From NCBI RefSeq assembly GCF_036346855.1, contig NZ_CP107841.1, forward strand, positions 3,662,001 through 3,726,000: a DNA stretch of 64,000 nucleotides, in the 5' to 3' direction. This DNA comes from Streptomyces europaeiscabiei (GTDB lineage: Bacteria > Actinomycetota > Actinomycetes > Streptomycetales > Streptomycetaceae). Positions 16,100-31,522 of the stretch are shown piece by piece. How positions within the stretch are numbered: the first letter of the stretch is position 1; each line of letters starts with the position of its first letter. The notes under the pieces are model-generated. The model was not told the DNA's origin, did not search any database, and saw only the letters and a program-made list of their open reading frames with translations. Position numbers and translations under genes: made by a program.

Positions 16100-16189
16100 T
16101 CCACGTATGCAGTGCTTTCCCGGGGGACAACCCCCGGCCCCCCGGCCGTCTCTCGGCGTACCCCGTGTCCTGAAGTCAGGGAGTCCTCA

Positions 16190-17455
16190 GTGAAGCTCAC
16201 CGTGGTCGGCGGAGGGTCGACCTACACACCCGAACTCGTCGACGGGTTCGCCCGGCTCAGAGACACCCTGCCGATCGAGGAGCTGGTGCTCGTCGACCCG
16301 GCCGCCGACCGGCTGGAGCTGGTCGGCGGCCTGGCCCGCCGGATCTTCGCCCGCCAGGGGCACCCCGGGCGGATCGTCACCACCGGCGACCTGGACCGGG
16401 GGGTCGAGGGCGCCGACGCCGTCCTCCTCCAGCTCCGTATCGGCGGCCAGGCCGCCCGCGAGCAGGACGAGACCTGGCCGCTGGAGTGCGGCTGCGTCGG
16501 CCAGGAGACGACCGGCGCGGGCGGCCTGGCGAAGGCGCTGCGCACGGTCCCGGTCGTCCTGGACATCGCCGAACGCGTCCGCCGTACCAACCCCGACGCC
16601 TGGATCATCGACTTCACCAACCCGGTGGGAATCGTGACCCGCGCCCTGCTCCGGGCCGGCCACAAAGCGGTCGGCCTGTGCAACGTGGCGATCGGCCTGC
16701 AACGGAAGTTCGCCGCGCACCTGGGGGTGACCCCGGCCGAGGTCCACCTCGACCACGTGGGCCTCAACCACCTCACCTGGGAGACCGGCGTCCGCCTCGG
16801 CGGCCCCTCCGGCGCGGACGTCCTGCCGAAGCTGCTGGCCGACCACGGCGACACCATCGCCGCCGACCTGCGCCTGCCCCGCCCCGTCCTGGACCGTCTG
16901 GGCGTGGTCCCCTCCTACTACCTGCGCTACTACTACGCCCACGACGAGGTCGTGCGGGAACTGGCGACCAAGCCCTCGCGGGCCGCCGAAGTGGCCGCGA
17001 TGGAAAGACAGTTGCTGGAGATGTACGCCGACCCGGCGCTCGACGAGAAGCCCGCGCTGCTCGCCAGGCGGGGCGGGGCCTTCTACTCGGAGGCGGCCGT
17101 GGACCTGGCCGCGTCGCTTCTGGGAGACGGGGGCAGCCCGTACCAGGTGGTGAACACCCTCAACCGCGGCACGCTGCCCTTCCTGCCCGCCGACGCGGTG
17201 ATCGAGGTGCAGGCCGCCGTGGGCAGGCAGGGGGCGGAACCGCTGCCGGTGCCGGCCGTGGACCCGCTGTACGCGGGCTTGATGGCGAACGTGACCGCGT
17301 ACGAGGACCTGGCCCTGGACGCGGCCCTGCGCGGCGGCCGGGACCGGGTGTTCCGGGCGCTGCTCTCCCATCCCCTGATCGGGCAGTACGAGTACGCCGA
17401 GGCCCTCACCGACCGGCTGATCGCACACAACCGGGAGCACCTCGCGTGGGCGTGA
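16190..17455 (+). CDS. csnH: GH4-family NAD-dependent glycosidase (6-phospho-beta-glucosidase-like)
   Basis: 421 residues from a GTG at 16190 with GGGAG upstream; the longer frame from 16112 lacks family support. The GH4 features are the NAD-binding start (LTVVGGGSTYTPELVDGFAR), the FTNPVGIVTRAL segment, the metal Cys in VGLCNVAIGLQ and the His in HVGLNHLTW. GH4 enzymes hydrolyse glycosides by a redox-elimination mechanism using NAD and Mn2+. The operon suggests it cleaves imported aminosugar oligomers. A CCGGGGG/CCCCCGG stem-loop sits in the gap after csnG (near 16120-16137). Confidence 0.88.
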   Translation: MKLTVVGGGSTYTPELVDGFARLRDTLPIEELVLVDPAADRLELVGGLARRIFARQGHPGRIVTTGDLDRGVEGADAVLLQLRIGGQAAREQDETWPLECGCVGQETTGAGGLAKALRTVPVVLDIAERVRRTNPDAWIIDFTNPVGIVTRALLRAGHKAVGLCNVAIGLQRKFAAHLGVTPAEVHLDHVGLNHLTWETGVRLGGPSGADVLPKLLADHGDTIAADLRLPRPVLDRLGVVPSYYLRYYYAHDEVVRELATKPSRAAEVAAMERQLLEMYADPALDEKPALLARRGGAFYSEAAVDLAASLLGDGGSPYQVVNTLNRGTLPFLPADAVIEVQAAVGRQGAEPLPVPAVDPLYAGLMANVTAYEDLALDAALRGGRDRVFRALLSHPLIGQYEYAEALTDRLIAHNREHLAWA

Positions 17456-17523
17456 GCGACGGCGTGAGCGACGGCGTGAGCGACGGCGTGAGCGACGGCG
17501 TGAGCGACGGCGTGAGCGACGGC
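17452..17523 (+). repeat. 12-bp tandem repeat (GTGAGCGACGGC x6) at the csnK start
   Basis: Six perfect 12-bp copies plus a degenerate seventh (GTGAGCGCGGGG). The length is a multiple of three, so changes in copy number keep the csnK frame. Every copy presents a GTG that could act as a start codon. Confidence 0.92.
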
Positions 17524-18600
17524 GTGAGCGCGGGGCCGGCCGACGGCAGGCATACGGGTTGGGGCGCGCGTACGGGTTGGGGCGCGGGCATGCGCACGGA
17601 CTCGGGCGCGGGCGTGCGCGGGCGCGACGGCGGGCGCGGGAGTGTGCTCGCCGTCGACGCGGGCAACAGCAAGACCGATGTCGCCGTGATCGCGCCGGAC
17701 GGGGAGGTGCTGGGGGCGGCGCGCGGCGGCGGCTTCCAGCCGCCGGCCGTGGGCGTGACCGTGGCGGTCGACGGCCTCGCGGAGGTCGTACGGCAGGCGT
17801 TCGCCGAGGCCGGGGTCGACTCGGTCGGCCATGTGTCGGCGTGTCTCGCCAACGCCGACTTCCCCGTGGAGGAGGAGCGGCTGGCGGCGGCGCTCCGCAC
17901 GCGCGCGTGGGGCACGACCGTCGAGGTCCACAACGACACCTTCGCCATTCTGCGGGCCGGCGTGGCCGAACCGCGGGGCGTGGCCGTGGTGTGCGGCGCC
18001 GGCGTGAACTGCGTCGGGATGCGCCCCGACGGCCGCACCGCCCGTTTCCCGGCGCTCGGCCGCATCTCCGGGGACTGGGGCGGCGGCTGGGGCCTCGCCG
18101 AGGAGGCGATGTGGCACGCGTCGCGCGCGGAGGACGGCCGGGGCGGCCCCACGGCCCTCGCCACCGCGCTGCCCGCGCACTTCGGCCTGGACTCCGTGTA
18201 CGCCCTGGTCGAGGCCCTGCACCTGGAGCACATCCCGGCGATCCGCCGCCACGAACTCACCCCGGTCCTCTTCGCCACGGCGACCGCCGGCGACCCGGTG
18301 GCCCGTTCCCTGGTGGACCGCATGGCCGAGGAGGTGGTGGCCATGGCGACGGTCGCCCTGACCCGCCTCGACCTTCTCGGGGAGGAGACCCCCGTCCTCC
18401 TCGGCGGCGGTGTCCTCGCCGCCCGGCATCCCCTCCTCGACGCCCGGGTCCGCGAGGCGCTGGCGGCCGCCGCGCCCAAGGCCGTCCCCCGGGTGGTCAC
18501 GGCCGCCCCCGTGCTGGGCGCGGCGCTGCTCGGACTGGACCACGTGGGAGCGCCGAGGACCGTGCACGCGCGCGTGCGGGAGCATTACGAAGGAGGGTGA
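17452..18600 (+). CDS. csnK: BadF/BadG-type sugar kinase with a repeat-encoded N-terminus
   Basis: Up to 382 residues from the GTG at 17452, which overlaps the csnH stop. The catalytic domain starts at VLAVDAGNSKTDVAVIAPDG (phosphate 1 loop), followed by VCGAGVNCVGM and GDWGGGWGLAEEAMW. It is an actin-fold BadF/BadG/BcrA family member, the group that includes N-acetylglucosamine and glucosamine kinases. About 60 residues precede the domain: six VSDG units, then Gly/Arg-rich sequence, all probably disordered. Each unit carries an in-frame GTG, so the true start is ambiguous; an ATG at 17590 is another option. Confidence 0.82.
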   Translation: MSDGVSDGVSDGVSDGVSDGVSDGVSAGPADGRHTGWGARTGWGAGMRTDSGAGVRGRDGGRGSVLAVDAGNSKTDVAVIAPDGEVLGAARGGGFQPPAVGVTVAVDGLAEVVRQAFAEAGVDSVGHVSACLANADFPVEEERLAAALRTRAWGTTVEVHNDTFAILRAGVAEPRGVAVVCGAGVNCVGMRPDGRTARFPALGRISGDWGGGWGLAEEAMWHASRAEDGRGGPTALATALPAHFGLDSVYALVEALHLEHIPAIRRHELTPVLFATATAGDPVARSLVDRMAEEVVAMATVALTRLDLLGEETPVLLGGGVLAARHPLLDARVREALAAAAPKAVPRVVTAAPVLGAALLGLDHVGAPRTVHARVREHYEGG

Positions 18601-18878
18601 CCCGGAGGCCCGCGCCACCCCACGAATCTCCCCCTCGAACGCGTTCGAACCCCCAGGGAACCGAACCCGACCGAAGCGCGTATTCATGGGCAGGGGGTGG
18701 TGCGGGAAGCCTTGTGCTGCGCCGGAATTCGACAAGCACAGCAGGTACGGACACGATCGGGGAACAAGATCGAGTCAGGGTCTGTGCGATGTCAGTCCCG
18801 ACGGCGATACTTGCGGCCGTGCACCTCTGTCCGTGCGAGCGGGCGGAAGCGATGGACGGATGACCAGGGGGAGGTCAG

Positions 18879-20351
18879 GTGACATTCACGCCGGAGGGCA
18901 GCGCGGTACCGACGGCACCACCCGCGGGCCCGGCCCCGGCCGTGCCGCCACAGGCCTCGCACCCGCCGAGGCCCCCCGTGCCGTCCCCGGACCCCGACGG
19001 CGGCCCGCCCCGCCGGACGGCGTTCGCGGAGGGTGTCGACCAGTTGCGCGCCGCCGCGACGACCGAGCCCGGCCGACTGCGCATCATCGGCGCCGTCCTC
19101 GCCCTCCTGGTCGTCGCGTTCGGTTCCGTCACCGCCTGGCAGATGAACGACCGCTCGGCCGCCGCCGACGACGTACTCCACAGCAGCCAGCCCCTCAGCT
19201 CGGCCGCGGCCGAGATCTACAGTTCCCTGGCCGCGGCCAACACGGCGGCCTCCAGCGGATTCCTCGCGGGCGGGCAGGAGACCGAGCAGTCGCGCAAGGA
19301 CTACGAGCGGGAGATGCGGGAGGCCGCGAAGCAGCTGGCCTTCGCCGCGACCGCGTCGGAGTCCGGTTCCGACTCCGAGGAACGCATCGCCAAGCTGAAC
19401 GCCCTGCTGCCCGAGTACAAGGGCCTGGTCGAGCGGGCCCGCGCCAACAACAGGCTGGGCTACCCGCTGGGCGGCGCCTATCTGCGCTACGCGAACGACA
19501 AGATGCAGGGCATGCTCGACGAGGCGCAGAACATCTACGACAACGAGAACGCACGGCTCCGCGACGACTACGCGGACGCCACGTCGTATCCGTGGGCCGC
19601 GATAGCTCTCGGTGTCCTCGCCATCGGCGGCCTCGTCTGGGCCCAGCGCCGTAACTACCGGCGAACGAACCGGGTGTTGAACCACGGTCTCGTCGCGGCG
19701 ACGGCTGCCTCGACCGTCGTCCTGCTGTGGTTGGCCGGCGGTCACACCCTCGCCCGCTCGGGACTCAACGACTCCTACGACAACGGTGTGCGGTCCCTGA
19801 CCGTGCTCAACGACGCGCGGATCGCCTCCCTCACCGCACGCGGCAACGAGAACCTGACCCTGATCAGCCGGGGCGCGGAGACCACCGAGAACGCCGAGGG
19901 CGAAAGCGTGGACAAGTTCGACTTCGCGTTCAAGACCAGCATGGCGACGCTCGAGAAGCAACTGGCCGCCGCCGAGGAGATCGCCGACAACGCCGGCGGG
20001 GAAGAGCCGCTGAAGGCCGCCGGCGCCGGCATGGAGGAGTGGCAGGCTCGGCACAAGAACGCCCGCGCGGCCGACGACAAGGGCGACTACCAGTGCGCTC
20101 TCGACCAGGTGATCGGTGGCGAGTCCACGGCCGCCTGCAAAGACGGTGACAAGCCGACCGGTGAGTGCTTCGACGAGGTCGACAAGAACCTGGGCATCGC
20201 GAGCAAGTACGAGGCGAAGGAGTTCGAGCTGGCGGCCCGGAGCGGCCGCGACGCGATGCTCGGACTTCCCGTCGGCGCCGCGGTGCTGGCCGTGCTGGGC
20301 GCGGCGGGCGCGGTGCTGGGCATCGGGCGCAGACTTTCGGAGTACCGGTGA
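18879..20351 (+). CDS. glnX: GlnX-like membrane sensor protein
   Basis: 490 residues from a GTG at 18879. A Pro-rich cytoplasmic N-terminus (to about 45) precedes membrane helix 1 (IIGAVLALLVVAFGSVTAWQ). A helical extracytoplasmic domain follows (about 90-240), then two close helices (AAIALGVLAIGGLVWAQRR and AATAASTVVLLWLAGG). A second helical extracytoplasmic domain contains four Cys, and a last helix ends the protein. In mycobacteria and corynebacteria GlnX passes the amino-acid signal from GlnH to PknG. The same three genes are adjacent here. The 278-base gap upstream (18601-18878) presumably holds the promoter; no other signal was recognised. Confidence 0.85.
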   Translation: MTFTPEGSAVPTAPPAGPAPAVPPQASHPPRPPVPSPDPDGGPPRRTAFAEGVDQLRAAATTEPGRLRIIGAVLALLVVAFGSVTAWQMNDRSAAADDVLHSSQPLSSAAAEIYSSLAAANTAASSGFLAGGQETEQSRKDYEREMREAAKQLAFAATASESGSDSEERIAKLNALLPEYKGLVERARANNRLGYPLGGAYLRYANDKMQGMLDEAQNIYDNENARLRDDYADATSYPWAAIALGVLAIGGLVWAQRRNYRRTNRVLNHGLVAATAASTVVLLWLAGGHTLARSGLNDSYDNGVRSLTVLNDARIASLTARGNENLTLISRGAETTENAEGESVDKFDFAFKTSMATLEKQLAAAEEIADNAGGEEPLKAAGAGMEEWQARHKNARAADDKGDYQCALDQVIGGESTAACKDGDKPTGECFDEVDKNLGIASKYEAKEFELAARSGRDAMLGLPVGAAVLAVLGAAGAVLGIGRRLSEYR

Positions 20352-20371
20352 CGGCGGCGGGAGGAGACACG

Positions 20372-21424
20372 GTGGAAGGGGTCGCGATGAATGCGGTACG
20401 ACGCCTGCGGGCCGGTCTCAGGGGCTGGGGCGGTGTGGGCGCGATGGCGGTTCTCTGCGCCTTGGCCGTGGTCTTCGCCCTCGTGCTGCCGGTGAGCGGG
20501 ACACGCGGCGACGGCGTCACGGGCATCGGGGGCCAGGGGGTCGCCCGGGGGACGCAGGCGCGGGCGGACGACGACTGCAAGAAGAAGAACGACCCGCAGA
20601 ACCGGAGCCTCAGGCCCTCCTCGGACGACTCCGGCGAGACGATCCGGCGGATCCAGGAGAACGACTACCTCACGGTCGGCGTCGACCAGAACAGCTTCCG
20701 CTGGGGTTACCGCGATCCGAACAGTACGAAGGACGGCGCCCAGCTGGAGGGCTTCGACATCGACATCGTGCACCGCATTGCCGAAGAGCTACTCGGCGAC
20801 GCGGACAAGGTTCATTTCAAGGCGATTCCCACCAGTCGGCGCATCCCCGCGCTTCAGGACGGGGAGGTCGACATGGTGGTCCGCACGATGACGATCAGCT
20901 GCGACCGCATGGACGACGTCGCCTTCTCGCAGCCGTACTTCAAGACCGGACAGCAGATCCTGGCCCCCAAGTCCTCGACGATCAAGGGCTACGGCAAGAC
21001 GCTGGCGAACAAGAAGATCTGCACGGCCGCCACTTCCACGGCACTGTCCGCCCTCACCGCCGGCAAGGAATCGGGCGAGCTGCCCGCCTCCACCGACATC
21101 TCCCTGACCGTCCCCAACCAACTCGACTGCCTGGTAAGGCTCCAGCTCGGCCAGGTCGACGCGGTGGTCACCGACGGCGCCCTCGCCGCGAGCCAGGCGG
21201 CGCAGGACCCGACGGTCGATCTGAAGGGTGAGCCGTTCACGACCGAGTACTACGGCGTGGCGATGAACCGGGACGCGACGGATCTGGTACGCCGGGTCAA
21301 CCAGGTGCTGGTGGACTATCTCAAGGACGGCTGGCAGGACTCGTACACCACCTGGCTGTCCGCCACGATGGTCGGGAACGCGGAGAAGTCCCGGCCGCCG
21401 TCCCCCCAGCAGTACCGGGACTGA
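20372..21424 (+). CDS. glnH: GlnH-like amino-acid-binding protein
   Basis: About 350 residues. The GTG at 20372 has GGAGGAG just upstream; a GTG at 20348 overlapping the glnX stop and an ATG at 20387 are alternatives. One N-terminal membrane segment (about 18-40) is followed by a polar linker. There is no lipobox Cys, unlike mycobacterial GlnH, so this copy seems membrane-anchored. The rest is a family 3 periplasmic binding fold, with YLTVGVDQNSFRWGYRDP, LEGFDIDIVHRIAEELLG and VDMVVRTMTISCDRMDDVAF. It should sense extracellular amino acids (Asp/Glu/Gln type) and signal through GlnX. Confidence 0.85.
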   Translation: MEGVAMNAVRRLRAGLRGWGGVGAMAVLCALAVVFALVLPVSGTRGDGVTGIGGQGVARGTQARADDDCKKKNDPQNRSLRPSSDDSGETIRRIQENDYLTVGVDQNSFRWGYRDPNSTKDGAQLEGFDIDIVHRIAEELLGDADKVHFKAIPTSRRIPALQDGEVDMVVRTMTISCDRMDDVAFSQPYFKTGQQILAPKSSTIKGYGKTLANKKICTAATSTALSALTAGKESGELPASTDISLTVPNQLDCLVRLQLGQVDAVVTDGALAASQAAQDPTVDLKGEPFTTEYYGVAMNRDATDLVRRVNQVLVDYLKDGWQDSYTTWLSATMVGNAEKSRPPSPQQYRD

Positions 21425-21491
21425 CACGACAGGACCGACGTACGAGGACCGCATTCAACTGACGGACACCGACAGCAGCGAGAGGTGATCG

Positions 21492-22817
21492 ATGGGCGTC
21501 GCGGGATCCACCGGGCCGGTGATGGACCGGGACGAGGTGGACCGTGCGCTCGCGCGGCTCGGCGCGGAGCACGAGGCCATCGAGACCTCGCTGCTCGCCC
21601 TGCAGGACCACGCGGGCCGCAGGCTGCTCGAGGGCGCCGCGCTGACCGGCGTCACCAAGGAGCGCTGGACGTCCGCGGACGCCTCGATCACGCTGCTGTG
21701 GGCGTACTTCGACGCGTACGCGGACGCGCTGCGCTCCGCCCGGGAGATCCGTTCACGGCGCCGCTGGTCCAGCCGTGAGGACCTGGTGGAACTGACCGAA
21801 CTCCTGCGCGGCGAGGCCGTGACGGTCGCGGGCAGTGCCACCGCGATGGCGAACGCACCGACGCTGCAGGGCACGAGCAGGCTCAGCGAGCGGTTCTCAC
21901 TGGTCACCCTCGTGGACCGGATGAACGACCTGTACGCGTCCTCGCTGGACATGGTCGTGGCCGCCGACGCGGTGTGGTCGGCGCTGCCCGCCCGGATCGA
22001 TCTACTGGCCGCCGAACTCCAGCGCACCCGCCAGCTCGCGCACTCCGTCGGCGTACGCCCCGGCGAGCACCCGGCCGGCGACGACCTGGAGCAGATCACC
22101 CGCACCCTGACCCGGCTCCGCGAGCAGGTCGTCTCCGACCCGCTGGCCTTCTGGGTCCCCTCGCCGGGCAGTTCGGCGCCCGGCGGCGGCCGCCCGGACA
22201 CCACCACGTACGACCGCGAGGCACGCGCCCTGGAGGACGTACGGCGGGAGATCGACGCCGTGTTGACGGTCCGCCAGGACGCGGAGTCGCGGCTGCTGAA
22301 GCTGCGGGACGTGCTCAGCCGCGCGGACCGTACGCTCGCCGAGGCGCGCAGCGCACGCGGTGAGGTGCTGGCGAAGATCGCCGCGACCGAGGTGCCCGTG
22401 GTGAGCGGCCCGCCGACGGTGTTGCAGGAGCAGTTGGCGATGGCGGCGGAGTACCGCAGACACGCGCAGTGGCACCGGTTGTCCCCGCTGCTGGAGTCCC
22501 TGGAGCAGAAGGCGGACGACGAACTGCTGCGCGCCCGGGAGTCGTTGACGGCGGTCACCGCGCCGCTGGCGGTCCGCGCGGAGCTGCGCGGCCGACTCGA
22601 CGCGTACAGGGCGAAGGTCGCCCGGCACGGCTTCGCGGAGGACTCGCTGCTGATCGAGCGGTACGACGCGGCGCGGCGCATGCTGTGGAGCGCCCCCTGC
22701 GACCTGCGCGTGGCCGAGATGACCGTGCTGCGCTACCAGCAGGCGGCCGCCGAGTTGCTGGGCCAGTCGGTGCCGGCCCGGCCCGCGCCCCAGGACCGCA
22801 GGGAGGAGGAATCGTGA
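21492..22817 (+). CDS. Helical, coiled-coil protein of the PknG cluster
   Basis: 441 residues, almost all predicted helix, with no signal peptide or membrane segment. Long charged heptad-like stretches lie at about 20-60, 230-330 and 360-420. A Ser/Gly/Pro-rich break (WVPSPGSSAPGGG) divides two helical halves. No enzymatic motif is visible. It lies between glnH and pknG, and the pknG GTG overlaps its stop by four bases, so it is translationally coupled to the kinase. A scaffold linking GlnX or PknG to partners is plausible, but the family is not recognised. Confidence 0.75.
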   Translation: MGVAGSTGPVMDRDEVDRALARLGAEHEAIETSLLALQDHAGRRLLEGAALTGVTKERWTSADASITLLWAYFDAYADALRSAREIRSRRRWSSREDLVELTELLRGEAVTVAGSATAMANAPTLQGTSRLSERFSLVTLVDRMNDLYASSLDMVVAADAVWSALPARIDLLAAELQRTRQLAHSVGVRPGEHPAGDDLEQITRTLTRLREQVVSDPLAFWVPSPGSSAPGGGRPDTTTYDREARALEDVRREIDAVLTVRQDAESRLLKLRDVLSRADRTLAEARSARGEVLAKIAATEVPVVSGPPTVLQEQLAMAAEYRRHAQWHRLSPLLESLEQKADDELLRARESLTAVTAPLAVRAELRGRLDAYRAKVARHGFAEDSLLIERYDAARRMLWSAPCDLRVAEMTVLRYQQAAAELLGQSVPARPAPQDRREEES

Positions 22818-25528
22818 GTCAGACGGACGAAGGCCTGGCAGGCGAGGGCCGGACGGGCGAAGAGGATCCGCAGCAGTCGTGTCAGCGGCCCGGTTGCTCG
22901 GGATCGTACGAGGACATGGGCGGCGGCGAGCTGTACTGCGACACCTGCGGTCTGGCGCCGGTCGTCTCGGCGAGCGGCATGGTCAGTTCCCCGCCCACCG
23001 GCATCACCGGGGGCGGCAGGGGCTCGCGCGGCTCCGGTACCAGCAGTTCGCGCTCCTCGCGTTCGTCCGCGCGCTCCTCGCAGTCCCGGCGCTCGGTGTC
23101 CGGGCGCCTCTCGCGCGCCCTGTCGGGCAGGACGACGGGCCGCTCGGTGTCGGTGCGCAGCTCCGGCAAGACCGCCGGCTCCTCGGGACGGGCCCGGCTC
23201 GGTGTCGGTCTCGTCCAGGTCCCGGACGTGCCGCGTCCGGACCCGCGCGCGATGGTCCTGGAGACCGCCGAGGTGCCCGAGCGGAAGCGGTTCTGCTCGC
23301 GCTCCGACTGCGGCGCGCCGGTCGGGCGGGCGCGCGGTGAGCGGCCGGGGCGCACGGAGGGCTTCTGCACCAAGTGCGGCCATCCGTACTCGTTCGTGCC
23401 GAAGCTGCACGCGGGCGACATCGTGCGCGGACAGTACGAGGTCGTGGGCTGTCTCGCGCACGGCGGTCTGGGCTGGGTCTATCTGGCCATCGACCGGGCG
23501 GTGTCGGACCGGTGGGTCGTGCTGAAGGGCCTGCTCGACACCGGCGACCAGGACGCGATGGCCGCCGCGATCTCCGAGCGCCGCTTCCTCGCCGAGATCG
23601 AGCACTCCAACATCGTCCGTATCTACAACTTCGTCGAGCATCTCGACCAGCGCACCGGCTCGCTGGACGGGTACATCGTCATGGAGTACGTCGGCGGCAA
23701 GTCCCTCAAGGAGATCGCCAACGACCGCCGCACCACGGACGGCCGCCGGGACCCGCTCCCGGTCGAGCAGGCGTGCGCGTACGGCATCGAGGCCCTGGAG
23801 GCGCTCGGCCACCTGCACAGCCGCAACCTGTTGTACTGCGACTTCAAGGTCGACAACGCGATCCAGACCGAGGACCAGCTCAAGCTGATCGACATGGGCG
23901 CGGTGCGCAGGATGGACGACGACGAGTCGGCCATCTACGGCACGGTCGGCTACCAGGCGCCCGAAGTCGCCGACGTCGGCCCGTCGGTGGCCTCCGACCT
24001 GTACACGGTCGCCCGTACGCTCGCGGTCCTCGCCTTCGACTTCCAGGGCTACACGAACGTCTTCGTGGATTCGCTGCCCGACCCCGACAACATCGAGGTC
24101 TTCCGCCAGTACGAGTCCTTCTACCGTCTGCTGGTCCGTGCCACCGACCCGGACCCGGCCCGCCGGTTCGCCTCCGCGCAGGAGATGTCGGAGCAGCTGA
24201 CCGGTGTGCTGCGGGAGGTCGTGTCCCTCCAGACGGGCCGGGCGCGCCCCGCCCTGTCCACGATCTTCGGCCCCGAGGTGAAGGTCACGGACACGGAACT
24301 GTTCGCGAAGCTGGACGGGGATGTGTCCCGGCTGGGGACACGGGTGATTCCGGTGGGCAAGGGGCTCCGGCGAGGCAAGGTGGTGGCCGCCCGGAACGGG
24401 GGTTCGGCTTCCGCGTCGCCTGCCCGGAACGGTGGTTCCCCTTCCGGTACGCCCGCTCTGCCGACCGGCGGTGCCGTCGCCGTTCCGGCCCGGCTCACCA
24501 GGGAGCTCGACACCGCCGCCGCGGCCCTCGCGCTGCCCGTGCCGCGCGTGGACCCGGGGGACCCGAACGCCGGGTTCCTGGCGGGGCTCATGGCCTCCGC
24601 GCCCACCGAGCTGATCACGGCGCTGCACTCGGCCCCCAGCGGCTCGCTGGAGCTGCGGCTGCGCGAGCTGCGGTCCCGGCTGGAGATGGGCGAGTTCACC
24701 ATCGCGCTGGCCACCCTGGACGCCCTGGAACGGGACCACCCCGACGACTGGCGGGTGGTCTGGTACCGGGGCGTGGCGGCGCTCGCCACCGGCGACCACG
24801 AGAACGCCGCGCTGTCCTTCGACGCGATCTACGACGCCTTCCCGGGCGAGCCCGCTCCCAAGCTGGCCCTCGGACTGTGCGCCGAGGTGCTCGGGCAGCT
24901 GGACAACGCCGCCGAGTACTACCGCCTGGTGTGGACGACCGACCCCAGTTTCGTCAGCACCGCGTTCGGGCTCGCCCGGGTGCGGCTGACCGCCGGGGAC
25001 CGGCAGAACGCCGTCCACACCCTGGAGTCCGTACCGGAGGCGTCCATCCACTACACCGCCGCCCGGGTCGCCGCCGTACGGGCGCGACTCAGACACCGTA
25101 CGGAGGCGAGGCCCGGGTCCGGGGCCGTGCCGTCCGGGGCTGTGCCGCCCGGGACCCTGCCGTCCGGGACGCTGTCGTCCGGGATCGCGAAGTCCGAAGC
25201 CGTGCCGGACGCACCCTTCCTGGACGACCTGATCGCGGCCGCCGGGCAGGTCGAGGCGCTCGGCGGGTACGGTCTGGATGCGGTGCGCCGCGAGCAGTTG
25301 TCCACAGAGGTCCTTGGCTGCGCCCTTGACTGGGTACTCTCCGGGGGCCAGGGTGTCGCGCCCCCGGCAGGCGGGCGGGTGCTGCTCGGCAGCGCGCTGG
25401 ACGAGCGCGGCCTCCGCTTCGGACTGGAGCGGTCGTACCGCACACTGGCCCGGCTCGCCCAAGGCGGCGAGGAGAGGATCGACCTGGTGGAACGTGCCAA
25501 CCGTTACCGCCCCCGGACGTGGGTGTAG
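22814..25528 (+). CDS. pknG: PknG-like Ser/Thr protein kinase with zinc ribbons and TPR tail
   Basis: 904 residues from a GTG overlapping the previous stop. A first zinc site uses C23, C28, C42 and C45. A long Ser/Arg-rich linker follows (about 60-120). The second zinc site is rubredoxin-like (FCSRSDCGAP ... FCTKCGHPYSF, about 157-195). The kinase domain spans about 200-470: Lys near 237 in VVLKGLL, catalytic YCDFKVDN near 340 and IDMGAVRRMDDDESAIYGTV near 359. The usual HRD and DFG are replaced as in mycobacterial PknG. The C-terminal part (about 600-900) is TPR-like, with a PSGAVPPGTLPSG-type repeat. It is likely the cytosolic output of GlnX/GlnH, acting on FHA proteins that control 2-oxoglutarate metabolism. 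Confidence 0.93.
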   Translation: MSQTDEGLAGEGRTGEEDPQQSCQRPGCSGSYEDMGGGELYCDTCGLAPVVSASGMVSSPPTGITGGGRGSRGSGTSSSRSSRSSARSSQSRRSVSGRLSRALSGRTTGRSVSVRSSGKTAGSSGRARLGVGLVQVPDVPRPDPRAMVLETAEVPERKRFCSRSDCGAPVGRARGERPGRTEGFCTKCGHPYSFVPKLHAGDIVRGQYEVVGCLAHGGLGWVYLAIDRAVSDRWVVLKGLLDTGDQDAMAAAISERRFLAEIEHSNIVRIYNFVEHLDQRTGSLDGYIVMEYVGGKSLKEIANDRRTTDGRRDPLPVEQACAYGIEALEALGHLHSRNLLYCDFKVDNAIQTEDQLKLIDMGAVRRMDDDESAIYGTVGYQAPEVADVGPSVASDLYTVARTLAVLAFDFQGYTNVFVDSLPDPDNIEVFRQYESFYRLLVRATDPDPARRFASAQEMSEQLTGVLREVVSLQTGRARPALSTIFGPEVKVTDTELFAKLDGDVSRLGTRVIPVGKGLRRGKVVAARNGGSASASPARNGGSPSGTPALPTGGAVAVPARLTRELDTAAAALALPVPRVDPGDPNAGFLAGLMASAPTELITALHSAPSGSLELRLRELRSRLEMGEFTIALATLDALERDHPDDWRVVWYRGVAALATGDHENAALSFDAIYDAFPGEPAPKLALGLCAEVLGQLDNAAEYYRLVWTTDPSFVSTAFGLARVRLTAGDRQNAVHTLESVPEASIHYTAARVAAVRARLRHRTEARPGSGAVPSGAVPPGTLPSGTLSSGIAKSEAVPDAPFLDDLIAAAGQVEALGGYGLDAVRREQLSTEVLGCALDWVLSGGQGVAPPAGGRVLLGSALDERGLRFGLERSYRTLARLAQGGEERIDLVERANRYRPRTWV

Positions 25529-25531
25529 TTG

Positions 25532-26848
25532 ATGTCGCAGATGCCCCAGCCGACCGCGCTGACGAAGTGCCCGATCTGCGAGTGGCCCCTCGCCTCGGAC
25601 GACCGCTTCTGCGGTGCGTGCGGCCATGACCTCTCGGCGGCGCCCGCGCCGCCGGAGGACCAGCCGACCGTCACCCTGAACGGGACGGCGGGTGACGCGC
25701 CCGACGAGGCCTCGCCCGTGGACTGGCCCCTCGCCTCCCAGCCCAGCACCGACACGCCCCCGCCGGTGGTCCGCCCCACCGACATCCCGGGCACCGACTC
25801 CGGCGGCGGCGAACTGCCCGGTCCGGGGCGGGGCGTACGGTTCGACCGGCCCCGCGAGCCCGACGAGTACCCACTGGCCGCGCCCCAGCCGCCGGATCCG
25901 CGCACCGCCGACCTCGCCACCCCGCCCGCCGGCACGAAGGTGTGCGTGGCCTGCCGTGCGGGCCACGTCGACCGGGACGGCTACTGCGAGAACTGCGGGC
26001 ACGCCCAGCCGCGTGAACGCGACCACATGGAACTGGAGTTGGGCGCGGTCGCCGCGGTCAGCGACCGGGGTCTGCGCCACCACCGCAACGAGGACTCGTT
26101 CGCGATCTCCTCGACCGCGCTGCCGGACGGCTCCCCCGCGGTCGTCGCGATCGTCTGCGACGGCGTGTCCTCCGCGACCCGCCCCGACGACGCCTCGCTC
26201 GCCGCGGCCCGCGTCGCCAACGAGGCGGTCCTGGACTCGCTGCCGCGCGGCACCCACCCGCAGCAGGCCCTGCACGACGCGATCGTCGCCGCCGCAGGCG
26301 CCGTCAACGCACTGGCGGAGGAACCGGAGACGGCCCAGGAGCACGCCCCGCACCAGAACGCGCCGGCGTGCACCATCGTCGGCTCCGTCGTCACCCCGAC
26401 CCTGCTCGTCGTGGGCTGGGTCGGCGACAGCCGCGCCTACTGGGTCCCGGTCGACCGGAGCGCACCCCCGGCACGGCTCACCGAGGACGACTCGTGGGCG
26501 GCACAGATGGTGTCCGCGGGACTGATGAGCGAGGCCGAGGCGTACGCCGACGAGCGCGCCCACGCGATCACCGGCTGGCTCGGCGCGGACGCGTACGAAC
26601 TGGAGCCGCACACCGCTTCCTTCAAACCGGACCGGCCGGGTGTAGTGGTGGTGTGCACCGACGGACTGTGGAACTACGCGGAGGCCGCCGAGGAGATGGC
26701 CGAGGCCGTGCCCCTCGACGCGGCCGAGAGGCCGCTGCACTGCGCGCAGGTTCTGGTCGGCCGGGCCCTCGACGGCGGTGGCCACGACAACGTAACAGTG
26801 GCCGTCATGCCGTTCCCGGCACCTCCTCAGGGGGCAGGATCGGCCTGA
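25532..26848 (+). CDS. PP2C-family phosphatase with two N-terminal zinc ribbons
   Basis: 438 residues from the ATG at 25532, 3 bases after pknG; a TTG one codon earlier is also possible. Two CxxC-CxxC ribbons are seen: CPICEWPLASDDRFCGACG (about 12-30) and CVACRAGHVDRDGYCENCG (about 138-156). Between them is a Pro/Asp-rich linker. The PPM catalytic domain follows: HHRNEDSF, VAIVCDGVSS, VGWVGDSRAYW, VCTDGLWNY and GGHDNVTVAV, with all metal-binding Asp residues present. It should reverse phosphorylation by the adjacent PknG. Confidence 0.93.
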   Translation: MSQMPQPTALTKCPICEWPLASDDRFCGACGHDLSAAPAPPEDQPTVTLNGTAGDAPDEASPVDWPLASQPSTDTPPPVVRPTDIPGTDSGGGELPGPGRGVRFDRPREPDEYPLAAPQPPDPRTADLATPPAGTKVCVACRAGHVDRDGYCENCGHAQPRERDHMELELGAVAAVSDRGLRHHRNEDSFAISSTALPDGSPAVVAIVCDGVSSATRPDDASLAAARVANEAVLDSLPRGTHPQQALHDAIVAAAGAVNALAEEPETAQEHAPHQNAPACTIVGSVVTPTLLVVGWVGDSRAYWVPVDRSAPPARLTEDDSWAAQMVSAGLMSEAEAYADERAHAITGWLGADAYELEPHTASFKPDRPGVVVVCTDGLWNYAEAAEEMAEAVPLDAAERPLHCAQVLVGRALDGGGHDNVTVAVMPFPAPPQGAGSA

Positions 26849-26928
26849 GGGTGCTCGCGGACGGGGTGTCCGCGGGCGCCACGGCGGCCGGACGGGAAGG
26901 GCCGACGGACCGGAGGGGACCGGTCCGG

Positions 26929-26982
26929 TACGGGCACGCACAGTCATACGGGCATGCACAGTCATACGGGCACGCACAGTCA
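26929..26982. repeat. 18-bp tandem repeat upstream of the VWA gene
   Basis: Three copies of TACGGGCACGCACAGTCA start at 26929, 26947 and 26965; the middle one has one change. They occupy the 189-base gap (26849-27037) between the phosphatase and VWA genes, about 56 bases before the VWA start. Confidence 0.85.
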
Positions 26983-27037
26983 TCACCCCACAGGCTGTGG
27001 GGCCAACAGTGGGGCTGCTAGGGGGATCAGAGTAGGC

Positions 27038-28384
27038 ATGGCCAATTTCTCGAAGTCGAACGTGCCGCAGTTCTCGGTCGAGGTCTACCAGAACGAGTAC
27101 CTGCCCGAGGGCGGCCGCGAGGTCAACGCCATCGTGACGGTCAGCGCGACCGGCGGCGGCACCATCGGCAGCGCGGTCGCCGCGCCGCACCTCTATTCGC
27201 CCGGCCAGGGCCCGTCCGCCGCCGTGGCGCTCATGGTCGACTGCTCGGGGTCGATGGACTACCCGCCGACCAAGATGCGCAACGCCCGGGACGCCACGGC
27301 CGCCGCGATCGACACCCTGCGCGACGGCGTCCACTTCGCGGTGATCGACGGCACCCACGTGGCCCGGGAGGTCTACCCCGGCGGGGGTCGGCTCGCGGTC
27401 GCCGACTCCGCCACCCGGGACCAGGCCAAGCAGGCGCTGCGCAGGCTCAGCGCGGGCGGCGGCACCGCCATCGGCACCTGGCTGAAGCTCGCGGACCGGC
27501 TGCTCGCCTCGGCGGACGTCGCCATACGCCACGGCATCCTGCTCACCGACGGCCGCAACGAGCACGAGTCGCCGCAGGACCTGAAGGCCGCGCTGGACGC
27601 CTGTGCCGGACGGTTCACGTGTGACGCGCGTGGAGTGGGCACCGACTGGGAGGTCAAGGAGGTCACCCAGATCGCCTCCGCGCTCCTCGGCACCGCCGAC
27701 ATCGTCGCCGACCCGGCCGCCCTGTCCGCCGACTTCACGCAGATGATGGAGGCGGCCATGGGCAAGGAGGTCGCGGACGTCGCTCTGCGACTGTGGACCC
27801 CGGTCGGCACCCAGATCAAGTTCGTGAAGCAAGTGGCGCCCACGGTAGAGCAGTTGACCGACCGTCGCACCGAGTCCGGGCCGCGCGCCGGGGACTACCC
27901 GACCGGCTCGTGGGGGGACGAGTCCCGCGACTACCACGTGTGCGTCGAGGTGCCGGCCGCGTCCCTCGGCCAGGAGATGCTGGCCGCCCGCGTCTCCCTC
28001 GTCATCCCCCAGCCCGACGGCACGGCACAGAACCTCGGCGCGCAGGGTCTGGTGAAGGCCGTGTGGACCGACGACATGGTCGCGTCCACGTCGATCAACC
28101 CCCAGGTCGCGCACTACACAGGCCAGGCCGAACTGGCACAAGTCATCCAGCAGGGGCTCGATGCTCGCAAATCCGGCGATTTCGACGGAGCGACGGCCAA
28201 GTTGGGACGGGCCGTTCAGCTCGCCAGCGCGTCGGGCAACGCGGATACTGCGAAACTGCTTGCGAAGGTGGTGGACGTGGTCGACGCGGCGACAGGTACT
28301 GTGCGACTGAAGGCGAAGGTCACGGAGGCCGACGAGATGACTCTCGAAACACGGTCGACAAAGACTGTTCGTGTAAAGAAGTAG
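27038..28384 (+). CDS. VWA-domain protein (TerY/YegL-like)
   Basis: 448 residues from an ATG at 27038. The von Willebrand factor A domain starts near residue 60: VALMVDCSGSMDYPPTKM (MIDAS DxSxS), TAIGTWLKLADRL and ILLTDGRNEHES. The N-terminus (FSVEVYQNEYLPEGG) and a C-terminal helical half (about 350-440) are typical of VWA proteins found next to FHA, PP2C and kinase genes. No signal peptide is seen, so it is cytosolic. With PknG and PP2C it makes a kinase-phosphatase-VWA triad, as described for TerY-type phosphosignalling. Its partner is unknown. Confidence 0.9.
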   Translation: MANFSKSNVPQFSVEVYQNEYLPEGGREVNAIVTVSATGGGTIGSAVAAPHLYSPGQGPSAAVALMVDCSGSMDYPPTKMRNARDATAAAIDTLRDGVHFAVIDGTHVAREVYPGGGRLAVADSATRDQAKQALRRLSAGGGTAIGTWLKLADRLLASADVAIRHGILLTDGRNEHESPQDLKAALDACAGRFTCDARGVGTDWEVKEVTQIASALLGTADIVADPAALSADFTQMMEAAMGKEVADVALRLWTPVGTQIKFVKQVAPTVEQLTDRRTESGPRAGDYPTGSWGDESRDYHVCVEVPAASLGQEMLAARVSLVIPQPDGTAQNLGAQGLVKAVWTDDMVASTSINPQVAHYTGQAELAQVIQQGLDARKSGDFDGATAKLGRAVQLASASGNADTAKLLAKVVDVVDAATGTVRLKAKVTEADEMTLETRSTKTVRVKK

Positions 28385-28519
28385 GCAGAAGCAACCGGAA
28401 ACACCGCTGCACGTCAGCCTGACGCTCCCAGCGGAAATCCGGGCAGAACCAGCCACACCGGCCCGTCGCGGCCACAGGAACCGGCCGTGAGGCCGGAAAG
28501 GAGAGGGGGAAGCGCCGAC

Positions 28520-30256
28520 ATGCCGACCTGCCCGAACGGACACCAGTCGGGTTCCGACGACTGGTGCGAGGTCTGCGGTCACCGTATGGCCGGTGCCGTA
28601 CCCCCGCCGCCGCCACCGCCGCCCCCGGGCGCCGGCTACGGATACCCGCCGCCCGGTTCACCTCCCCCGCCTCCGGGCGCGGGCGGTCCCGGGGGTCCCG
28701 GTGGACGCCCGCACCTCGCCGCCCAGCCGGAACTCTGCCCGCAGTGCCGCACGCCCCGTGAGGGCGGCGCGCCCTTCTGCGAGGAGTGCCGGTGGAACTT
28801 CCTGACCAACACCGCGACGACGTACACCCCGGCCGCGCCCCGGCCGTCGGCGCCCGGACCCGGCGCCGGTCCGGGGGGTCCCGGCCCCGGCGGTCCCGGT
28901 CAGGGTCCCGGTCCCGGCGGGAACCCTGCGCTCCGGTTCCAGCAGCAGCCGCCCCCTCCGTCCTTCGGCGGCGGTGACGGGTACGACTACCAGGGTTCCC
29001 GCCCCTCGCAGATCAACCGTCCCGCCGAACCGATCCCCCCGGGGTCGCCGTTCGGCGGAGAGCCGTCGGGTCCGGGTGGGCCCGGGGGTCCGGGCGGAAA
29101 CGGTGGGTTCGGCGGGCCGGGTGGCCACGGGGGTCCCGGCGGTCATGGCGGCCCGGGTGGGTCTGGCCGTCCGGGTGGTCCCGGTGGGCCGTCGGGGCCG
29201 GGTGGTTCCTCCGGGTTCGGCGGCGGGCCCTCGGGCCAGCCCGGTCAACCCGGCCAACCCGGTCCGGGACAGTCCGGCCAGCCCGGTCCGTCCGCGTTCG
29301 GCGGAGATCCTTCGCGACCTGGGCCCTCGGGCTTCGGCGGCGACCCTTCACGGCACAGCCCCTCGGCCTTCGGCGGCGATCCTTCCCGCCCCGGGCCCTC
29401 GGGCTTCGGCGGCGACCCTTCACGCCCGGTTCCGCCGCCGCCCGGCCCTACGCCGGGTGGGCCTGGCGGCCCCGGTGGCCCCGGTGGGCCTGGTTTCCCC
29501 GGGCCCGGCCAAGGTCCCGGTGGTGGTCAGGGCCCCGGTGGGGCGCCGCAGGCGTTCCAGCAGGCGGGGCCGTCGGCTCCGCCCGCCTTCCCGCAGGAGA
29601 CCCGGCGACCGCAGCCCGGGGGGCCTGGTGGGCCTGGTGGTCAGGGCCCCGGTGGTCAGGGCCCCGGTGGTCAGGGCCCCGGTGGCGGCCCCTCCTTCGG
29701 TGCTGACGACGACTGGGTGATCTCCCCGCCATCGACCGGCCCCGGTGGATCCGGTGGCCCCGGTGGTGCGGGGGCTCGCCCCGGTGGCTACGGCTACCCG
29801 CCGCCCGGCGCCACCCAGGCCCCGCCCGGCCCCGCGTATCCCCAGGCGCCGACGACCTGGAGCGCGACCATCGGCCCGGACCGCGACTACTTCATGGCGA
29901 TGATGCAGCGCTCGGGCCCCGAGGCCACGGGCCTGAACCTGCCCGCGTACTCCCCGGAGCAGCGTCGCGCCCTCACCGGCAGCCAGATCACCATCGGGCG
30001 CCGTCGTCACTCCACCGGCGACACCCCCGACATTGATCTCTCCGTGCCGCCGGAGGACCCGGGCGTCTCCCACCAGCACGCGGTGCTGGTGCAGCAGCCC
30101 GACGGCGGCTGGGCGGTCGTCGACCAGAACTCCACGAACGGAACCACCGTCAACGGTTCCGAGGACCCCATCCAGCCGTTCGTCCCGATCCCCCTCCAGG
30201 ACGGGGACCGCGTACACGTGGGCGCGTGGACGACGATCACTATCCGCCGGGGCTGA
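28520..30256 (+). CDS. FHA-domain protein with zinc ribbons and Gly-Pro-rich linker
   Basis: 578 residues. The ATG at 28520 has GGAGAGGGGG upstream; a GTG at 28487 is a possible longer start. A first ribbon (CPNGHQSGSDDWCEVCG) is followed by a poly-Pro stretch, then a second ribbon (CPQCRTPREGGAPFCEEC, about 75-92). Residues about 110-450 are a collagen-like Gly-Pro-Gly region with FGGDPSRPGPS repeats, certainly disordered. The C-terminal FHA domain (about 485-578) has ITIGRRRHS, VSHQHAVLV and NSTNGTTVNG, the phosphothreonine-binding residues. It is the natural phospho-dependent partner of the cluster kinase. Confidence 0.93.
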   Translation: MPTCPNGHQSGSDDWCEVCGHRMAGAVPPPPPPPPPGAGYGYPPPGSPPPPPGAGGPGGPGGRPHLAAQPELCPQCRTPREGGAPFCEECRWNFLTNTATTYTPAAPRPSAPGPGAGPGGPGPGGPGQGPGPGGNPALRFQQQPPPPSFGGGDGYDYQGSRPSQINRPAEPIPPGSPFGGEPSGPGGPGGPGGNGGFGGPGGHGGPGGHGGPGGSGRPGGPGGPSGPGGSSGFGGGPSGQPGQPGQPGPGQSGQPGPSAFGGDPSRPGPSGFGGDPSRHSPSAFGGDPSRPGPSGFGGDPSRPVPPPPGPTPGGPGGPGGPGGPGFPGPGQGPGGGQGPGGAPQAFQQAGPSAPPAFPQETRRPQPGGPGGPGGQGPGGQGPGGQGPGGGPSFGADDDWVISPPSTGPGGSGGPGGAGARPGGYGYPPPGATQAPPGPAYPQAPTTWSATIGPDRDYFMAMMQRSGPEATGLNLPAYSPEQRRALTGSQITIGRRRHSTGDTPDIDLSVPPEDPGVSHQHAVLVQQPDGGWAVVDQNSTNGTTVNGSEDPIQPFVPIPLQDGDRVHVGAWTTITIRRG

Positions 30257-30356: not shown

Positions 30357-31340
30357 TCAGCCCGGGAGAGGCCAGGCGTACGGCCCTTCCGGGTCGTCCA
30401 GCCAGGCCCAGGCGTGCTCGCCGCGGACCGTGATGCCGTAGCGCTCGCGGGAGGGCATGCCCTCGCGCTGCCACAGGGCGAGGGCCTCGTGCGGGTCGAG
30501 GCTGCCCGCTGTGAGGGCCAGCAGGAACCGGAAGAGCTCGTGGTCCCTGGCCCGGCTCGGCAGCCCGCCCAGATGCGGATGCATCGCCTCCGGCTCGCTG
30601 CCCCCGCGCAGCGGCACGAAGTACGCCGACGTGTGCAGGAAGCGCCCCTCGGCATGCTCCGTGTCCTCGACCAGCAGCCGTACCAATCCCGTGGCCAGCG
30701 GCGTCAGGATGCGTGCGCCAGGGGCGCACTGGGCTAGCCAGGCGCGCGGGATCGAGTGCAACGTGCAGGTCGCGATGATCCGGTCGTACGGCGCCCGCTC
30801 GGGCACCCCGCGCGCCCCGTCCCCGGTGACGACGGTCGGGTGGTACCCGGCGGCGTCCAGATGCCTGCGCGCCGCCTCCGTGATGTCGGCGTCCAGATCG
30901 ACGGTCGTGACCAGGTCGTCCCCCAGCCGGTAGGCGAGCAGGGCGGCGTTGTACCCGGTGCCGGCGCCGATCTCCAGCACTCGGTCGCCGTCCTCCACCT
31001 CCAACTCGGCCAGCATCTTCGCCATCAGCGACGGCTGACTGCTGGAGGAGATCAACTGCCCGTCGCGCACCCGGGTGGCGAGCGGGGCGTCGGCGTACGC
31101 GCCCCGCACCCAGCGGCCACGCCGCCGCGGGTCACGCTCCTCGCCCCACAGCCGCTCGAAGCCGTCCACGGCACTCACGTAGTAGTAGGGCACGAAGAGG
31201 TGCCGGGGAACGCTCTCGAACGCCTTCCGCCACTCCGGGTCGGCGTCCCACGCCCCGCTCGCCTCGATCTCGCGCACCAGCGCCGACCGGGCCTCGGCGG
31301 CGAGGCGTTCCAGATCGTGGTCCACAGCGTGCGTGCCCAT
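30357..31340 (-). CDS. Protein-L-isoaspartate O-methyltransferase-like protein
   Basis: 327 residues from the ATG at 31340; the frame extends to a GTG at 31412 (351 residues), and neither start has an ideal ribosome binding site. FESVPRHLFVPYYY and DGQLISSSSQPSLMAKMLAE match the isoaspartyl methyltransferase substrate-binding start. VLEIGAGTGYNAALLAYRLG is the SAM site. A C-terminal extension of about 100 residues (about 220-327) exceeds the roughly 210-residue classical enzyme and marks an actinobacterial variant, whose true substrate may differ from damaged aspartyl residues. Confidence 0.85.
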   Translation of the reverse strand: MGTHAVDHDLERLAAEARSALVREIEASGAWDADPEWRKAFESVPRHLFVPYYYVSAVDGFERLWGEERDPRRRGRWVRGAYADAPLATRVRDGQLISSSSQPSLMAKMLAELEVEDGDRVLEIGAGTGYNAALLAYRLGDDLVTTVDLDADITEAARRHLDAAGYHPTVVTGDGARGVPERAPYDRIIATCTLHSIPRAWLAQCAPGARILTPLATGLVRLLVEDTEHAEGRFLHTSAYFVPLRGGSEPEAMHPHLGGLPSRARDHELFRFLLALTAGSLDPHEALALWQREGMPSRERYGITVRGEHAWAWLDDPEGPYAWPLPG

Positions 31341-31522
31341 ACCTCCACTGTGCGGCCGGACGCCTCCGGAGGCGAGCACCACGCCATACCGGTCCGGAAT
31401 CAACCGGTCCACCCCCTTCGCCCGGCGCCCGCGCCCTGCCAGGCCGCCGGTCTCCCCACAGCGTCCTTCTCGATGGTCCTAAGCCTCAAGACCTCCGCCG
31501 CCGCGTCTGAGACCATGGGAAG

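What the first reader, a model, noticed from the sequence alone, without database searches (positions are those of the whole stretch)
18879..30256. PknG sensor module fused to a kinase-phosphatase-VWA-FHA circuit
Seven same-strand genes encode a membrane sensor (GlnX-like), a binding protein (GlnH-like), a helical unknown, a PknG-like kinase, a PP2C phosphatase, a VWA protein and an FHA protein. Known: mycobacterial GlnH/GlnX/PknG sense amino acids and phosphorylate the FHA protein GarA/OdhI. Also known: TerY-type VWA proteins occur with PP2C and a kinase. Having both in one locus suggests a complete phospho-relay with writer, eraser, reader and VWA scaffold for nutrient sensing. Inference: the FHA protein here is a local reader, distinct from GarA.
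Basis: partly seen in the sequence, partly recalled or inferred. Interest (0 to 1): 0.78.

Follow-up and report, generated by a model that had tools for sequence, protein, structure and literature searches.

The report
Seven-gene amino-acid phospho-switch operon
Many actinobacteria carry the nutrient-sensing kinase PknG in a seven-gene cluster that adds a phosphatase and a pair of partner proteins built like an archaeal starvation switch, and the three-gene version studied in mycobacteria may be a cut-down form.

The parts
18879..20351 (+). GlnX-family membrane signal transducer
   Evidence: NF058618, 473 bits over residues 61-490
20387..21424 (+). GlnH-like extracellular amino-acid-binding protein; hydrophobic N-terminal segment without a lipobox cysteine (sequence reading)
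   Evidence: PF00497; 6h1u E 1.3e-38; pocket residues; start chosen by me (open frame begins 20165)
21492..22817 (+). All-helical protein of unknown family ('Hel')
   Evidence: No Pfam/NCBIfam family over cut-off; AlphaFold2 mean pLDDT 93, mostly helical; same place in most full loci
22814..25528 (+). PknG: N-terminal Zn ribbon, Ser/Arg-rich linker, rubredoxin, kinase, TPR
   Evidence: PF16919, PF00069, PF16918; 2pzi 540 bits
22880..22951 (+). Extra N-terminal Zn ribbon of PknG
   Evidence: Cys pattern present in 93 of 102 loci that have PP2C, VWA and FHA, and in 1 of 12 trio loci
25529..26848 (+). PP2C phosphatase with two N-terminal Zn ribbons (ATG at 25532)
   Evidence: PF13672 and PF13248; NF033484 101 bits, below cut-off; four catalytic motifs in 101-109 of 112 PP2Cs, the first motif (strict pattern) in 89, two or more CxxC upstream in 90
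27038..28384 (+). VWA protein, ArnB-like: beta-sandwich + vWA with MIDAS + C-terminal helical region
28355..28372 (+). Conserved C-terminal tail S-T-K-T-V-R (residues 440-445 of 448)
   Evidence: S440, T443, R445 invariant in 38 aligned VWAs; S-x-x-T in 101 of 103 VWAs of FHA-bearing loci
28487..30256 (+). Zn-ribbon/FHA protein (probable start 28520)
   Evidence: FHA at 29987-30223; two or more CxxC upstream in 102 of 103 relatives
29987..30223 (+). FHA domain with the usual phosphothreonine-site residues (GR, S, N of S-x-N-G-T)
   Evidence: GR, S and S.NGT conserved in at least 95% of 103 relatives; their role is general knowledge of FHA domains

Best explanation
The locus is one signalling unit. 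GlnH binds an amino acid outside the membrane and GlnX passes this to the cytosolic kinase PknG, as proposed for the mycobacterial and corynebacterial trio. PknG (writer) and the PP2C (eraser) set the phosphorylation of the C-terminus of the ArnB-like VWA protein, most likely at the conserved S-x-x-T tail. The Zn-ribbon/FHA protein (reader) holds the VWA protein loosely through its Zn ribbons and tightly through its FHA domain once the C-terminus is phosphorylated, as ArnA does with ArnB in Sulfolobus. The complex is then an output, alongside or instead of GarA. Shown here: gene content, linkage, conserved active-site motifs, ArnB-like fold, tail conservation, GarA encoded elsewhere. Inferred: every phosphorylation, binding and output step. 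My odds: the seven genes work together 0.9; the VWA-FHA pair is a phospho-switch as described 0.6; the tail is the site 0.5.
Against: No phosphorylation or binding data exist here for these proteins. ArnB's phosphosites lie in an extended helix pair, not in such a tail, and mutating single sites had little effect. The tail is at least partly ordered: 4fx5 aligns up to model residue 446, so its conservation may be structural. Two FHA-bearing loci with low-scoring VWAs (L052, L077) do not keep the motif. The link of tail and FHA gene is not strict: L043 and L153 (the same Spirillospora locus) and L067 keep the tail without a detected FHA gene. Nine of 102 full-type loci have no obvious PknG N-terminal Zn ribbon. 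The window genome's GarA keeps both Thr of ETTS, so GarA may still be the main output there.
Confidence: 0.57

Rival explanations
1. GarA remains the main PknG output. The local FHA protein docks on autophosphorylated Thr of the PknG N-terminus, as GarA does in mycobacteria, and serves as an adaptor or competitor for GarA; VWA is a scaffold only.
For: An OdhI/GarA-family protein is found in 50 of 50 genomes. The window genome's GarA keeps ETTS. Autophosphorylated Thr in the M. tuberculosis PknG N-terminus recruits the GarA FHA domain (passages of PMC8546545). GarA is among the nearest solved matches of the local FHA domain, after a plant protein (1uht) and RNF8.
Against: The PknG-specific first Thr of GarA is V or Q in 12 and Ser in 6 of 30 genomes with a full or near-full locus, so PknG-GarA coupling at that site is not a shared feature. 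The rival does not explain the conserved VWA tail.
Confidence: 0.22
2. The VWA, FHA, PP2C and helical proteins form a separate module that only shares regulation with the sensor trio and serves another kinase; gene order reflects co-expression.
For: In one unnamed family (f63) PP2C-VWA-FHA occur in extra loci without GlnX/GlnH, with no PknG match (L209, L210) or a short PknG-like kinase (L211). Gene order differs in f62.
Against: Several of these extra loci keep a PknG-like kinase next to PP2C (L211, L212, L218, L219, L223, L224), and 92 of 97 genomes with VWA_3_C have PknG.
Confidence: 0.13
3. A TerY-type VWA/PP2C/kinase triad with stress or metal sensing as its role.
For: The same three protein classes occur together. 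A kinase-PP2C-vWA set is also reported in actinobacterial GAP1-N2 neighbourhoods (passage of PMC7159879).
Against: The VWA protein is about twice the size I recall for TerY, matches the three-part ArnB structure over its whole length, and no TerY model was hit. TerY itself was not fetched.
Confidence: 0.05

Closest known systems
GlnH-GlnX-PknG-GarA/OdhI pathway (Mycobacterium, Corynebacterium)
   Same: Related GlnX, GlnH and PknG in one locus; a GarA-family protein in the genome.
   Different: Four further conserved genes; PknG, PP2C, the local FHA protein and GarA carry N-terminal Zn ribbons. In GlnH, R147, R169 and D250 of the M. tuberculosis pocket are kept, but W232 is Q in the window and H, Q, Y, D, I or F in at least 85 of 95 full-type loci.
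ArnA-ArnB-ArnC-PP2A module of Sulfolobus
   Same: vWA protein with beta-sandwich and C-terminal helices; Zn-ribbon/FHA partner from a neighbouring locus tag; kinase with a TPR-like part and a phosphatase; nutrient input.
   Different: PknG and PP2C rather than ArnC and PP2A; a membrane amino-acid sensor in the same locus; a short Ser/Thr tail instead of ArnB's extended phosphorylated helix pair; about 14% identity.
Kinase/PP2C/vWA sets in actinobacterial GAP1-N2 systems (PMC7159879, passage)
   Same: Kinase often with a Zn ribbon, PP2C and a standalone vWA as neighbours.
   Different: The passage seen names no GlnX, GlnH or FHA partner and the paper's text has no 'PknG'; GAP1-N2 genes were not looked for here.
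PpkA-PppA-Fha pathway of type VI secretion (recalled)
   Same: Kinase, PP2C, VWA domain and FHA protein used together.
   Different: VWA is fused to the kinase (PMC1262709 passage on PpkA); the secretion output is recalled; no comparison was run.

Membership tests
PknG | Rubredoxin + kinase + PknG TPR domains | tested here: met
   PF16919, PF00069, PF16918
PknG | Encoded with glnX and glnH | tested here: met
PknG | Phosphorylates GarA/OdhI at the first Thr of ETTS | not testable with these tools
   Motif kept in the window genome's GarA; no activity data
GlnX | NF058618 (GlnX family) over cut-off | tested here: met
   473 bits, cut-off 250
GlnX | NF041460 (equivalog, protein kinase G-activating GlnX) over cut-off | tested here: not met
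   180 bits, cut-off 780: family member, not filed as the equivalog
GarA/OdhI (for the local FHA protein) | ETTS switch motif N-terminal to FHA; NF041660 over cut-off | tested here: not met
   The TT beside FHA in the window is not kept in relatives; NF041660 22 bits, cut-off 200
ArnA-ArnB | vWA protein with beta-sandwich and C-terminal helical domain | tested here: met
ArnA-ArnB | Neighbouring gene for a protein with N-terminal Zn ribbon and C-terminal FHA | tested here: met
   VWA directly followed by FHA in the two main gene orders (93 of 140 loci with all seven genes); two or more CxxC upstream of FHA in 102 of 103
ArnA-ArnB | ArnB_C domain with its Thr phosphosites | tested here: inconclusive
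   Only PF18571 was reported for the C-terminus; whether an ArnB_C model is in the library was not checked
ArnA-ArnB | Phosphorylation- and nutrient-dependent complex | not testable with these tools
   needs protein biochemistry
TerY triad | TerY-family vWA protein | tested here: inconclusive
   No TerY model among the NCBIfam hits; TerY not fetched
Type VI PpkA-PppA-Fha pathway | Kinase-VWA fusion beside type VI secretion genes | not tested
   Kinase and VWA are separate genes here; no secretion genes were searched for

The most novel reading that the evidence does not exclude
The seven-gene locus is the usual and perhaps ancestral PknG system. Its core is a bacterial counterpart of the archaeal ArnAB phospho-switch, with the VWA C-terminal tail as an original PknG substrate. 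Mycobacteria and their kin lost this branch together with the Zn ribbons of PknG and GarA and keep GarA alone as output, so the textbook PknG-GarA pathway would be a reduced form of a vWA/Zn-ribbon-FHA switch shared by bacteria and archaea.
Probability: 0.28. Interest if true: 0.85.

Novelty: new variant of a known kind. Interest (0 to 1): 0.69.

Why it matters
PknG is studied mainly through GarA in mycobacteria and corynebacteria. If many PknG loci carry a dedicated phosphatase, an ArnB-like vWA protein and a Zn-ribbon/FHA reader, the best-known model lacks part of the circuit and PknG has an unexamined candidate substrate. It would also give the structure 4FX5 a pathway, and link an archaeal starvation switch to amino-acid sensing in antibiotic-producing bacteria. 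The proposed tail site can be tested with one kinase assay.

Tried and rejected
Rejected: a GarA-like TT switch next to the local FHA domain; the PTTW of the window is not kept in relatives. Rejected as a rule: loss of the PknG-specific Thr of GarA wherever the full locus occurs; it holds in f63 and part of f62, not in Streptomyces. Rejected as evidence: tail-only VWA remnants in family f63 (L215, L216, L218, L219, L223, L224); their similar DNA runs past the stop codon, the FHA gene starts close by (my reading), and they may be decaying genes; L215 has Ser for the last Thr.

Biases and limits: the 80 named loci are the best matches to a full-type PknG among a capped list, so they over-represent full loci. 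The 60 unnamed were chosen by hand across families from the matches. Of 18 named loci lacking some gene, 11 are cut by contig ends (my reading). PF16919 misses PknG without rubredoxin. Family labels f1, f3 and so on are unnamed; that f3 is mycobacteria and kin is my inference, from L026 PknG matching M. tuberculosis PknG at 1405 bits. PknG outside Actinomycetota was not tested. Three of the named holders near Acidimicrobiales are MAGs, of which one (L122) has all seven genes; misbinning was not excluded. The absence of this locus from print rests on searches in an open-access library; supplements (such as those of PMC6069109) and figures were not seen, and papers were seen as listings, abstract starts or passages only.

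Full report
Observation. The window lies in a 10.95-Mb genome near Streptomyces caniscabiei/scabiei, judged by the helical protein (97% identity). Seven same-strand genes run from 18879 to 30256. Profile searches confirm GlnX, GlnH, PknG, PP2C, VWA and FHA and leave the third protein without a family.

Conservation. PknG_rubredoxin occurs in 137 of 394 genomes of the class and VWA_3_C in 97 of 394. Ninety-two genomes have both, 45 only PknG, 5 only VWA_3_C and 252 neither. In family f3 (taken as mycobacteria and kin, since L026 PknG matches M. tuberculosis PknG at 1405 bits) 2 of 34 PknG genomes have VWA_3_C; of 103 other PknG genomes 90 do. With profiles built from the window's proteins, all seven genes lie together in 31 of 60 and 62 of 80. 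The order GlnX-GlnH-Hel-PknG-PP2C-VWA-FHA accounts for 22 and 59 of these, Hel-PknG-PP2C-VWA-FHA-GlnX-GlnH for 9 and 3. Named holders of all seven include Kineosporia, Cellulomonas, Kribbella, Promicromonospora, Nocardioides, Terrabacter, Granulicoccus, a Microbacteriaceae strain, Actinoplanes, Kitasatospora, Streptomyces and an Acidimicrobiaceae MAG (L122); Actinomadura has the second order. Eleven of 60 are GlnX-GlnH-PknG only, nine in f3 and two in f89; one more trio (L053, f62) has GlnX and GlnH after PknG. Two f3 genomes hold a full locus: G498 (L035, beside a trio L033) and G419 (L222).

What the parts are. PknG keeps its catalytic-loop pattern in 136 of 140 relatives. Four PP2C motifs are kept in 101-109 of 112, the first by a strict pattern in 89. 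FHA phosphothreonine residues are kept in at least 95% of 103. Zn ribbons recur: two or more CxxC before the PP2C domain in 90 of 112 and before FHA in 102 of 103, and at the PknG N-terminus in 93 of 102 full-type loci against 1 of 12 trio loci. GarA N-termini could be read in 45 of 50 genomes: 34 have a Zn ribbon (30 with a full or near-full locus, 1 trio, 3 without PknG), and 11 have none (10 trio genomes and G498; my count; the main locus of one of the 30, G225, has only GlnX, GlnH, PknG and PP2C). The GlnH pocket keeps R147 (95 of 95 full-type loci), R169 (92) and D250 (91) of M. tuberculosis GlnH. W232, which contacts the ligand side chain, is Q in the window and not W in at least 85 of 95, but W in 11 of 12 trio loci (residues from PMC6069109 passages; counts). 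So an amino acid is the likely ligand, but Asp/Glu specificity should not be assumed.

The Arn precedent. In Sulfolobus, ArnA has an N-terminal Zn ribbon and a C-terminal FHA domain. ArnB is phosphorylated in its C-terminal helix bundle by ArnC, a kinase with a TPR-like stretch, and PP2A reverses this. The FHA domain binds phosphorylated ArnB and the Zn ribbon alone can hold the unphosphorylated form; the complex depends on nutrients (passages). Each class of part has a counterpart here.

The tail. In 38 aligned VWAs of 448-residue type, S440, T443 and R445 are invariant, T441 and K442 nearly so. Of 113 VWAs scoring at least 300 bits, 111 fit a strict tail pattern; one of the two misses is cut by the contig end and the other (L146) has the motif with Asn for Asp. 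Among 103 VWAs from loci with an FHA gene, 101 have S-x-x-T, 94 of them with R at +2; the two others (L052, L077) score under 300 bits and lack it. In seven paralogous PknG-VWA loci without the FHA gene (L041, L072-L075, L217, L220) the motif is altered or loses the arginine; L041 differs only by Thr for Ser. Against a strict link: L043/L153 (one locus seen twice, without PP2C or FHA; its genome has a second locus, L042, with both) and L067 (no FHA match) keep the full motif; four further loci without FHA are cut by contig ends and keep it. The residue three after the last Thr is V or I in 85 of 111, which fits the liking of FHA domains for a hydrophobic +3 residue (recalled). 4fx5 aligns to residue 446, so this stretch is partly ordered in the crystal; ArnB's sites are also poorly accessible in the folded model and are thought to need a conformational change.

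GarA. An OdhI/GarA-family protein is found in 50 of 50 genomes, 12 over the curated cut-off, all at E <= 9.4e-48 and away from the PknG locus; three of the 50 are Streptomyces without a PF16919 match. PknG acts on the first Thr of ETTS and PknB on the second (PMC2784874 passages). Among 30 genomes with a full or near-full locus the first position is T in 12, S in 6, V in 3 and Q in 9, the second always T (my count). In 12 trio or trio-bearing genomes it is T in 9, K or R in 2 (f89) and S in 1. The window genome keeps both Thr. PknG control of GarA may therefore persist in Streptomyces, but is unlikely to be the common function of full loci.

How it most likely works. Amino acid outside, GlnH, GlnX, PknG; PknG against PP2C on the VWA C-terminus; the Zn-ribbon/FHA protein as reader; the helical protein as a possible scaffold, which rests only on its position and helical fold. 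What the VWA-FHA complex controls is unknown; GarA or a transcriptional effector are first candidates.

Novelty. Papers seen as passages describe the three-gene operon as conserved (PMC6069109, PMC8546545), and one describes kinase/PP2C/vWA neighbours in GAP1-N2 systems (PMC7159879). Searches pairing PknG with vWA returned one paper with all terms (PMC1262709), whose passages concern the PknG-glnH link and the VWA domain of PpkA; the search pairing ArnA/ArnB with PknG returned no paper on this locus. Each component family is known. The combination, the Arn parallel and the tail are what appears new.

Noticed in passing
L074 (G000:C1:6013800-6033790); L072, L073, L075: Streptomyces genomes, including the window's own, carry a divergent PknG paralogue next to a VWA protein that ends in its own Zn ribbon, without PP2C or FHA; three of these kinases (L072, L073, L075) lack the usual catalytic-loop pattern.
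   Followed up: partly
L041, L217, L220: A second type of paralogous locus, PknG-VWA-GlnX, with no GlnH, PP2C or FHA match.
   Followed up: partly
L209, L210, L211, L212, L215, L216, L218, L219, L223, L224: Family f63 has extra PP2C-VWA-FHA loci with a short, partial or undetected PknG-like kinase; in six of these ten the VWA frame is reduced to about 60-200 codons but its tail region remains.
   Followed up: partly
L221 (G290): A Streptomyces without a PF16919 match keeps a decaying copy of the locus, with VWA in pieces and weak PknG and GlnX fragments.
   Followed up: no
GarA loci L159-L208: GarA carries an N-terminal Zn ribbon in 34 of 45 genomes read, all outside f3 and f89, in step with the PknG N-terminal Zn ribbon.
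   Followed up: partly
window 15200-18863: Upstream lies a sugar-use cluster: an ABC permease-like protein (sequence reading), a family 4 glycosidase and a BadF-type ATPase-like frame (sequence reading); probably a separate unit.
   Followed up: no
window 30357-31412 (-): The gene after the FHA gene, on the other strand, is a PCMT-like methyltransferase close to the ATP-grasp peptide maturase methyltransferase model (269 bits, cut-off 380).
   Followed up: no
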